From NCBI GenBank assembly GCA_003166855.1, contig PMUM01000347.1, forward strand, positions 1 through 40,978: DNA of 40,978 nt. Direction: 5' to 3'. The translations under genes were made by a program, and so were the position numbers. Under the pieces are notes generated by a model. That model was not told the origin of the DNA and did no database searches. It saw only the letters and a list, made by a program, of their open reading frames with translations. Positions 20,453 to 21,930 of the stretch are shown one piece after another (position 1 is the first letter of the stretch; each line of letters begins with the position of its first letter). The stretch comes from Acidobacteriaceae bacterium. Lineage in GTDB: Bacteria > Acidobacteriota > Terriglobia > Terriglobales > Acidobacteriaceae.

Positions 20453-21832
20453 CTAGCGTTTGTAAATCGTGGTGTCGGGGTGATAGTTGCGCCAGTCGAA
20501 CCAGTAGTCTTTGAGGGCGGGGACGCGATCGAGGCATTTGCCCAGCGATGGTCCGGAAATGGCGCAGCCCTGGAAGTTCCAGTCGCTGGCGGTGGTGGTG
20601 TCGAGCAGGATCCAGGGTTTGGGTGTGGCTGGAGCCGCCGGCTTAGTTGCGGTCGAAGCGTCTGGCTTTGATTCGGCTGGGGCCGTCGCCGCGGGCGCGG
20701 CTTTCATTTCCGCGTGCGGATCGGACTTCGCCGCGGCCGGCGCTTCAGGCTTCGTTTGCCCATCCGGTTGAGTCGGTACCTCGCCTTCGGTTTCGCCTTT
20801 CAGGAAGAACTCGGCGTCTTTTCCGTCGATGCGGCTGATGAATACGCGGAATGATTTTCCATCGGGACCGACCGCGACCAACAGCGGAGTGCCATTTACG
20901 CGGTCGACGACCGGGGATTGTTTCACCAGCGTGTTCCAGGGATAGGCGCGGCCGGGTCCCGTCATCTCCAGTCCAACGACCACGTCGCGAGATTTGAGTT
21001 CAGTCCCCGGAAAACTGATGACCACGGGATACTTCGCTGTCTCCGGCTCCCAGTTGCTGTCGTATTCCTTCGCGTACTTCGGAACCTCGGCGAGCACCTG
21101 GCCGTCAGAAAACTCCGATTTCCACTCGCCGAACGTCAGCTCATCACTCAATACAAGCTCGAGCGAAGCGCCTTTGAGCGGTCCGTAGATGGCCTTACCT
21201 GTGATCTGCTGCCACCACGTGCCCGTTTCTTTATCGCGCATCAGGAAGTTCTGGTTGTTGATGCCCGCGAGGTAAAAATGCAGGGCTCTTCCATTCACCG
21301 TACGTGTCCACACCAGACCGGTGTGACAGAGCGTTCAATAGGTGACGGCCACCGGGACGCTGGCAACGACGTCGTTCAACACATGGTGGTATGCCATTTC
21401 GCGAATGGGGTAGGCGCGCGCGTCGGAACCGAAGCGGACGGCGAGGATCATCTCTCCCTTGTCGAGTTTGCTGGCGGACTCAGATTCGAACTGCGCGCTG
21501 GGCACGGGGTGAAACATCCACTCAAAATAGTTGAGGCGAGACATGACAGCCGAGAATCCGACCAGCACCATTACCAGGGCGATCACGATCTTGCGCCACC
21601 AATTGGCGACGCCCCACAGCACAAGCGCGAGGATCAAGCAAACCAAAGCGGTGGCCAAGGTGCCCCAGGGGGCGTGTTGACGAAGAGCCATGGCGAGCGC
21701 CAGACCCGTTGGGGTTTGGTGGGTGAAGGGACGGATGATAAACGCCGGGACGAAAAACAGTCCGATTGCCACCACAGCCGATGCGGCAAAAGCGAGCCAT
21801 AGAAAAACGCGACGATCGGAAGATGATTGCAT
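20453..21832 (-). CDS. DUF3179-domain membrane protein, predicted selenoprotein (in-frame TGA at 21337-21335 read as Sec); N-terminus may extend to 21898
   Basis: The two ORFs 21335..21898 and 20453..21313 are in the same frame and join as ...YPIREMAYHHVLNDVVASVPVAVTY[TGA]TLCHTGLVWTRTVNGRALHFYLAGINNQNFLMRDKETGTWWQQITGKAIYGPLKG, i.e. one intact DUF3179 domain with TGA at the position of the first Cys of the CxxC motif. Confidence 0.75.
21305..21328 (-). promoter_or_regulatory. Putative bacterial SECIS-like stem-loop just 3' of the in-frame TGA
   Basis: Minus strand: TGA-acgctc-TGTCACACC-GGTCT-GGTGTGGACA; 9 paired bases with a single bulged G, loop GGTCT starting 16 nt after TGA; outer ACG/CGT pairing possible. 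Confidence 0.6.
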
Positions 21833-21930
21833 AGCGAAAGACTGCTCCCCGCGGCGCACCTTAGCAGGGCAAGCGCGTTGGGCAATTGTAGCAATCACGC
21901 GCGAGGAAAATAGCGAGCGGAACGGGATTT

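What the first reader, a model, noticed from the sequence alone, without database searches (positions are those of the whole stretch)
20453..21898. Candidate undescribed selenoprotein: DUF3179 protein with TGA at the first Cys of its CxxC motif
Seen directly: two minus-strand ORFs are in one frame, separated only by TGA (21337-21335). The joined product is ...NDVVASVPVAVTY-U-TLCHTGLVWTRTVNGRALHFYLAGINNQNFLMRDKETGTWWQQITG... Established: DUF3179 proteins carry a 'VTYCPLC(N/G)...' motif; the TGA falls exactly on its first cysteine, giving UxxC, a classical Sec-for-Cys replacement. The roughly 285 codons downstream stay open with clear protein features, which argues against a decaying pseudogene. 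DUF3179 has no well-established function, so a Sec form would suggest redox or metal chemistry at this motif.
Basis: partly seen in the sequence, partly recalled or inferred. Interest (0 to 1): 0.92.

Follow-up and report, generated by a model that had tools for sequence, protein, structure and literature searches.

The report
A real but already-catalogued selenoprotein gene
A soil acidobacterium reads one 'stop' codon in this gene as the rare amino acid selenocysteine; the evidence for that is very strong, but this protein family (DUF3179) is already on published lists of bacterial selenoproteins, so it is a well-supported new member rather than a new kind.

Summary
In detail: one minus-strand reading frame (21832-20453, 459 codons from a better-supported ATG) is interrupted only by TGA at 21337-21335, on the first Cys of the DUF3179 CxxC motif. 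Selenocysteine is strongly supported. The genome holds selA, selB, selD, tRNA-Sec(UCA) and a formate dehydrogenase with its own in-frame TGA. All 78 readable nearest relatives across Acidobacteriota carry TGA at the same codon. In the family sample, selA is present in 27/27 genomes with the TGA form and 0/7 with Cys. A GGUCU-loop hairpin 15 nt after the UGA is frozen at synonymous sites: 86/86 distinct TGA sequences have it, 0/15 Cys relatives. Two relatives moved the hairpin but kept the loop. Codons after the TGA are under purifying selection (dN/dS 0.06-0.13). 'Undescribed' is wrong: two reviews list DUF3179 (PF11376) as a UxxC/T selenoprotein family, and public records name it '(seleno)protein'. 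Additions here: Sec is ancestral in an acidobacterial clade with one apparent reversal to Cys where selA is gone; a second Sec clade has UxxA/V/T, so the first position is the essential one; the model shows three membrane helices plus a domain weakly resembling Rieske ferredoxins without their ligands. Biochemical function remains inferred.

The parts
20453..21832 (-). DUF3179 selenoprotein gene, 459 codons from ATG to TAG with UGA read as Sec at residue 166
   Evidence: start chosen by alignment with relatives
21335..21337 (-). In-frame TGA = Sec codon, first position of the UxxC (UTLC) motif
   Evidence: aligned with Cys codons TGC/TGT in selA-less relatives
21326..21328 (-). Second Cys of the UxxC motif
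21308..21326 (-). Bacterial SECIS-like hairpin: 7-bp stem UCACACC/GGUGUGG with 5-nt apical loop GGUCU (loop at 21319-21315)
   Evidence: synonymous freezing over codons 1-9 after the TGA; present in 86/86 distinct Sec forms, 0/15 Cys forms
20471..21496 (-). DUF3179 domain (PF11376)
21542..21823 (-). Region coding three predicted long hydrophobic helices (residues 4-32, 41-73, 78-97), N-terminal membrane anchor
   Evidence: AlphaFold2 model, mean pLDDT 89.6; membrane location and topology inferred
20534..20566 (-). CAISGPSLGKC: two C-terminal Cys (423 and 433), nearly invariant in the window's clade
   Evidence: at least 90% of 27 sequences

Best explanation
This is a selenoprotein gene of the known DUF3179 (PF11376) selenoprotein family. 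SelB carrying Sec-tRNA(UCA) binds the GGUCU-loop hairpin just after the UGA and delivers selenocysteine, giving a 459-residue protein with Sec166 in UxxC (machinery genes and RNA element shown at sequence level; decoding inferred). The product is probably an inner-membrane protein with three N-terminal helices and a periplasmic domain of two repeated halves with a weakly Rieske-like beta fold. Sec166 is most likely the reactive selenolate of a thiol/selenol redox site, with Cys169 or the C-terminal Cys pair as resolving thiol (inferred). The confidence given is for the Sec reading; for the redox step alone it is about 0.5.
For: Machinery in the same genome: selA 533 bits joined, selB with winged-helix domains, selD 339 bits, tRNA-Sec over the Rfam cut-off with loop CUUCAAA, anticodon UCA. 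A second selenoprotein, FDH alpha with ARVUHGPTV. TGA conserved at one codon in all 78 readable nearest relatives from several acidobacterial classes and in 27 of 34 scorable genomes of the family sample. selA in 27/27 Sec genomes, 0/7 Cys genomes. Synonymous sites frozen over nine codons after the TGA, then normal variation; Gly codon GGT 82/82 although GGT is only 11% of Gly codons elsewhere in these genes. GGUCU-loop stem in 86/86 Sec and 0/15 Cys sequences, with one compensatory C-G to G-C change and two relocated hairpins that keep the loop. dN/dS after the TGA 0.06-0.13, no weaker than before it. Tree: Cys forms nested inside a Sec clade.
Against: In the window alone the hairpin is not unusual: z about -0.7 against shuffles, and 14-22% of synonymous versions of the peptide could form the stem, so the case rests on comparison. 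The UGA-to-loop distance of 15 nt (16 if the loop's first G and last U pair) sits at the edge of the published 16-37 nt model. The genome is a MAG with 6.3% estimated contamination and the sel genes lie on other contigs. The PDB fold matches are weak (best E about 0.1 for Rieske ferredoxins). No expression or protein data.
Confidence: 0.96

Rival explanations
1. Pseudogene: the TGA is a nonsense mutation in a decaying DUF3179 gene.
For: A TGA interrupts an otherwise normal frame; public gene calls are truncated at this place.
Against: The same TGA is kept in 78/78 nearest relatives, no other stop in the frame, dN/dS 0.06-0.13 after the TGA, synonymous freezing right after it.
Confidence: 0.01
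2. Two proteins: translation stops at the TGA and restarts (for example at GTG 21313), giving a membrane piece and a separate soluble C-terminal piece.
For: Start codons exist downstream; databases hold roughly 280-residue proteins of this kind.
Against: The TGA replaces a Cys that is uninterrupted in selA-less relatives; the two pieces together are one Pfam domain and the motif around the junction is nearly invariant; a GGUCU hairpin has no reason to be kept for restart.
Confidence: 0.02
3. General UGA reassignment or non-specific read-through (Trp or Cys inserted) instead of Sec.
For: UGA is in frame and conserved.
Against: Several relatives use TGA as their own terminal stop, the genome has the full Sec machinery and a classical Sec-FDH, and the TGA form tracks selA.
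Confidence: 0.01

Closest known systems
DUF3179 (PF11376) selenoproteins, reported by Zhang & Gladyshev 2007 and tabulated in PMC9312934 and PMC13188914
   Same: Same Pfam family, Sec at the first position of a UxxC motif
   Different: Member of an acidobacterial clade with three N-terminal membrane helices and motif UTLCHTG; the two reviews do not mention Acidobacteria. The 2007 paper itself could not be read here.
E. coli formate dehydrogenase SECIS elements (fdhF/fdnG)
   Same: Hairpin just after the UGA; the GGUCU loop resembles the fdhF apical loop (from memory, not tested here)
   Different: Different stem sequence and slightly shorter spacing
Rieske ferredoxins and Rieske proteins
   Same: Best PDB fold matches of the soluble domain are mostly Rieske ferredoxins (Foldseek probability up to 0.99, TM about 0.55 on the small target)
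   Different: E-values about 0.1, none at or below 0.001; the invariant residues show no second pair of Cys/His ligands, so not a [2Fe-2S] Rieske protein as defined

Membership tests
Bacterial selenoprotein | Sec machinery (selA, selB, selC, selD) in the genome | tested here: met
Bacterial selenoprotein | In-frame UGA aligned with Cys of homologues, and UGA conserved in other Sec users | tested here: met
[quoted passage not shown]
   loop GGUCU, stem of at least 7 bp in 84 of 86 sequences, -9.2 kcal/mol for the 30-nt element; model from PMC13188914
Bacterial selenoprotein | 16-37 nt between the UGA and the apical loop | tested here: inconclusive
   15 nt for a 5-nt loop, 16 if the first G and last U of the loop pair; 20 nt in two relatives
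Bacterial selenoprotein | Selenium actually present in the protein | not testable with these tools
   needs 75Se labelling or mass spectrometry
DUF3179 (PF11376) | Match above the Pfam gathering score | tested here: met
   200.4 bits against 27
Rieske [2Fe-2S] proteins | Two Cys and two His cluster ligands in two loops | tested here: not met
   only U/C/H in the UTLCH motif; no second conserved Cys/His pair in the following strands in alignments A1, A2, A5
Rieske [2Fe-2S] proteins | Rieske fold | tested here: inconclusive
   Rieske ferredoxins head the Foldseek list, but at E about 0.1

The most novel reading that the evidence does not exclude
DUF3179 selenoproteins of Acidobacteriota are membrane-anchored proteins built on a Rieske-derived fold in which the iron-sulphur ligand loop has been turned into a selenol (or Se-metal) redox centre, i.e. 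a selenoprotein class with Sec in a Rieske-like scaffold.
Probability: 0.15. Interest if true: 0.6.

Novelty: new member of a known kind. Interest (0 to 1): 0.36.

Why it matters
It confirms, with far more sequence support than a single genome gives, that a family known only as a domain of unknown function is a true selenoprotein in much of the phylum Acidobacteriota, and that public gene calls for this clade lack the membrane anchor and the Sec residue. The Sec-to-Cys reversal together with absence of selA, and the second Sec clade with UxxA/V/T, point to the first motif position as the residue that matters, which gives a concrete handle on function.

Tried and rejected
Folding of the window alone gave no significant hairpin, and Rfam has no matching family there: single-sequence SECIS evidence was set aside in favour of comparison. 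Enumerating synonymous versions showed that the peptide itself makes the stem easy to form. The hairpin core GGTCTGGTGTGG occurs three more times in the genome, without a UGA at the right distance upstream. NCBIfam has no model that reaches this protein; no PDB sequence relative. The neighbourhood (a DUF899 gene next door) is conserved only in close relatives, so it says little about function. TGA avoidance as the terminal stop, suggested by the first 22 Sec genes, weakened with more sequences and was dropped. ARAGORN called the tRNA-Sec a tRNA-Glu; the Rfam alignment shows anticodon UCA.

Full report
Observation. The minus strand has one open frame with a single TGA (21337-21335) at the first position of what is VTYCxLC in other DUF3179 proteins. 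The joined product scores 200 bits against PF11376, with the match spanning the TGA, and the genome scan shows no other stop inside it. The GTG at 21898 is probably not the start; ATG 21832 aligns with relatives' starts, giving 459 residues and Sec at 166.

Machinery. The window lies in a 6.94-Mb draft genome in 479 contigs (93% complete, 6% contamination). It holds selA, selB with GTPase, beta-barrel and winged-helix domains, selD and a tRNA-Sec over the Rfam cut-off whose anticodon loop is CUUCAAA, i.e. UCA. It also has a formate dehydrogenase alpha gene with the classical ARV-U-HGPTV site. Contamination is an unlikely source of selA: all nine DUF3179-bearing genomes of the same genus in the sample have selA.

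Conservation of the TGA. In a sample of 251 genomes of the same family, 36 have DUF3179: 27 with one in-frame TGA, 7 with none, 2 only as fragments without the motif. All 27 TGA genomes have selA; none of the 7 Cys genomes does. These are not independent events: the tree suggests one Sec-to-Cys change inside the clade (L026, L029, L044, L050) plus a distant paralogue. In a scan of GTDB species genomes, the 80 nearest loci come from Terriglobia, Bryobacterales, Thermoanaerobaculia, Pyrinomonadaceae, Chloracidobacterium and others; 78 have TGA at this codon and two have N gaps there. Public protein predictions begin after the TGA and cover only about 58% of the protein.

SECIS. The window hairpin is not exceptional alone, and the peptide permits it easily. 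Comparison decides: codons 1-9 after the TGA are almost frozen at synonymous positions in 82 distinct sequences, while variation returns to normal from codon 11. The Gly codon in the loop is GGT in 82/82 Sec forms and 0/7 Cys forms, against 11% GGT elsewhere in the same genes. A GGUCU pentaloop on a stem of 5 bp or more (7 or more in 84) is present in all 86 distinct Sec sequences and none of 15 Cys relatives. One sequence has a compensatory C-G to G-C swap, and two (L068, L103) have lost this stem but form a new 7-bp stem five bases further on, again presenting GGUCU. The element meets the published bSECIS model (PMC13188914) except that the spacing is 15-16 nt, at its lower edge.

Selection. 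Between the window and its relatives dN/dS after the TGA is 0.06-0.13, no weaker than before it.

Second Sec clade. A phylum-wide scan found further DUF3179 proteins with one TGA. In those inspected it falls on the same motif position, with UPLC, UPLA, UPLV or UPLT, most with a different hairpin after the UGA. The tree needs at least three Sec/Cys changes (quick tree, long branches, so approximate). Loss of the second Cys in several Sec forms implies that position one is the essential residue.

Structure and mechanism. AlphaFold2 gives a confident model: three long N-terminal helices and a beta-rich domain (mean pLDDT 89.6; domain alone 87.3). I infer a membrane-anchored periplasmic domain. 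The two halves of the domain look like a repeat (inference from the alignment); only the first keeps the UxxC. The best PDB fold matches are mostly Rieske ferredoxins, but weakly (E about 0.1), and the four Rieske ligands are not conserved. I therefore favour a selenol/thiol redox site over an iron-sulphur cluster, at about even odds.

What is known. DUF3179 (PF11376) is listed as a UxxC/T selenoprotein family in PMC9312934, citing Zhang & Gladyshev 2007, and in PMC13188914. Public records use the name 'DUF3179 domain-containing (seleno)protein' even for a Cys member. Acidobacteria have been reported to contain selenoproteins (PMC1794560). The finding is therefore a new, very well supported member of a known kind; the clade-wide evidence, the reversal to Cys and the Rieske-like fold lead are the additions.

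Noticed in passing
19573-20370 (+): DUF899 (PF05988) gene convergent with the selenoprotein gene, with a GCPSC motif; kept next to it only in close relatives.
   Followed up: partly
22518-27821 (-): Type IV pilus-like cluster: PilX N-terminal and three N-methylation motif proteins, with a PilZ protein at 28047-29243 (+).
   Followed up: no
L153, L155, L161, L162, L164, L168, L169, L172: A second acidobacterial DUF3179 Sec clade (UPLC/UPLA/UPLV) with, in most, its own hairpin after the UGA.
   Followed up: partly
L068, L103: Relocated SECIS hairpin: old stem broken, new 7-bp stem five bases further on with the same GGUCU loop, in two divergent proteins.
   Followed up: partly
L002:1501-1589 (-): tRNA-Sec(UCA) that ARAGORN labels tRNA-Glu(ttc); the Rfam alignment shows a CUUCAAA anticodon loop.
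   Followed up: yes
L055:1621-1623 (-): Formate dehydrogenase alpha with in-frame TGA, ARVUHGPTV.
   Followed up: yes
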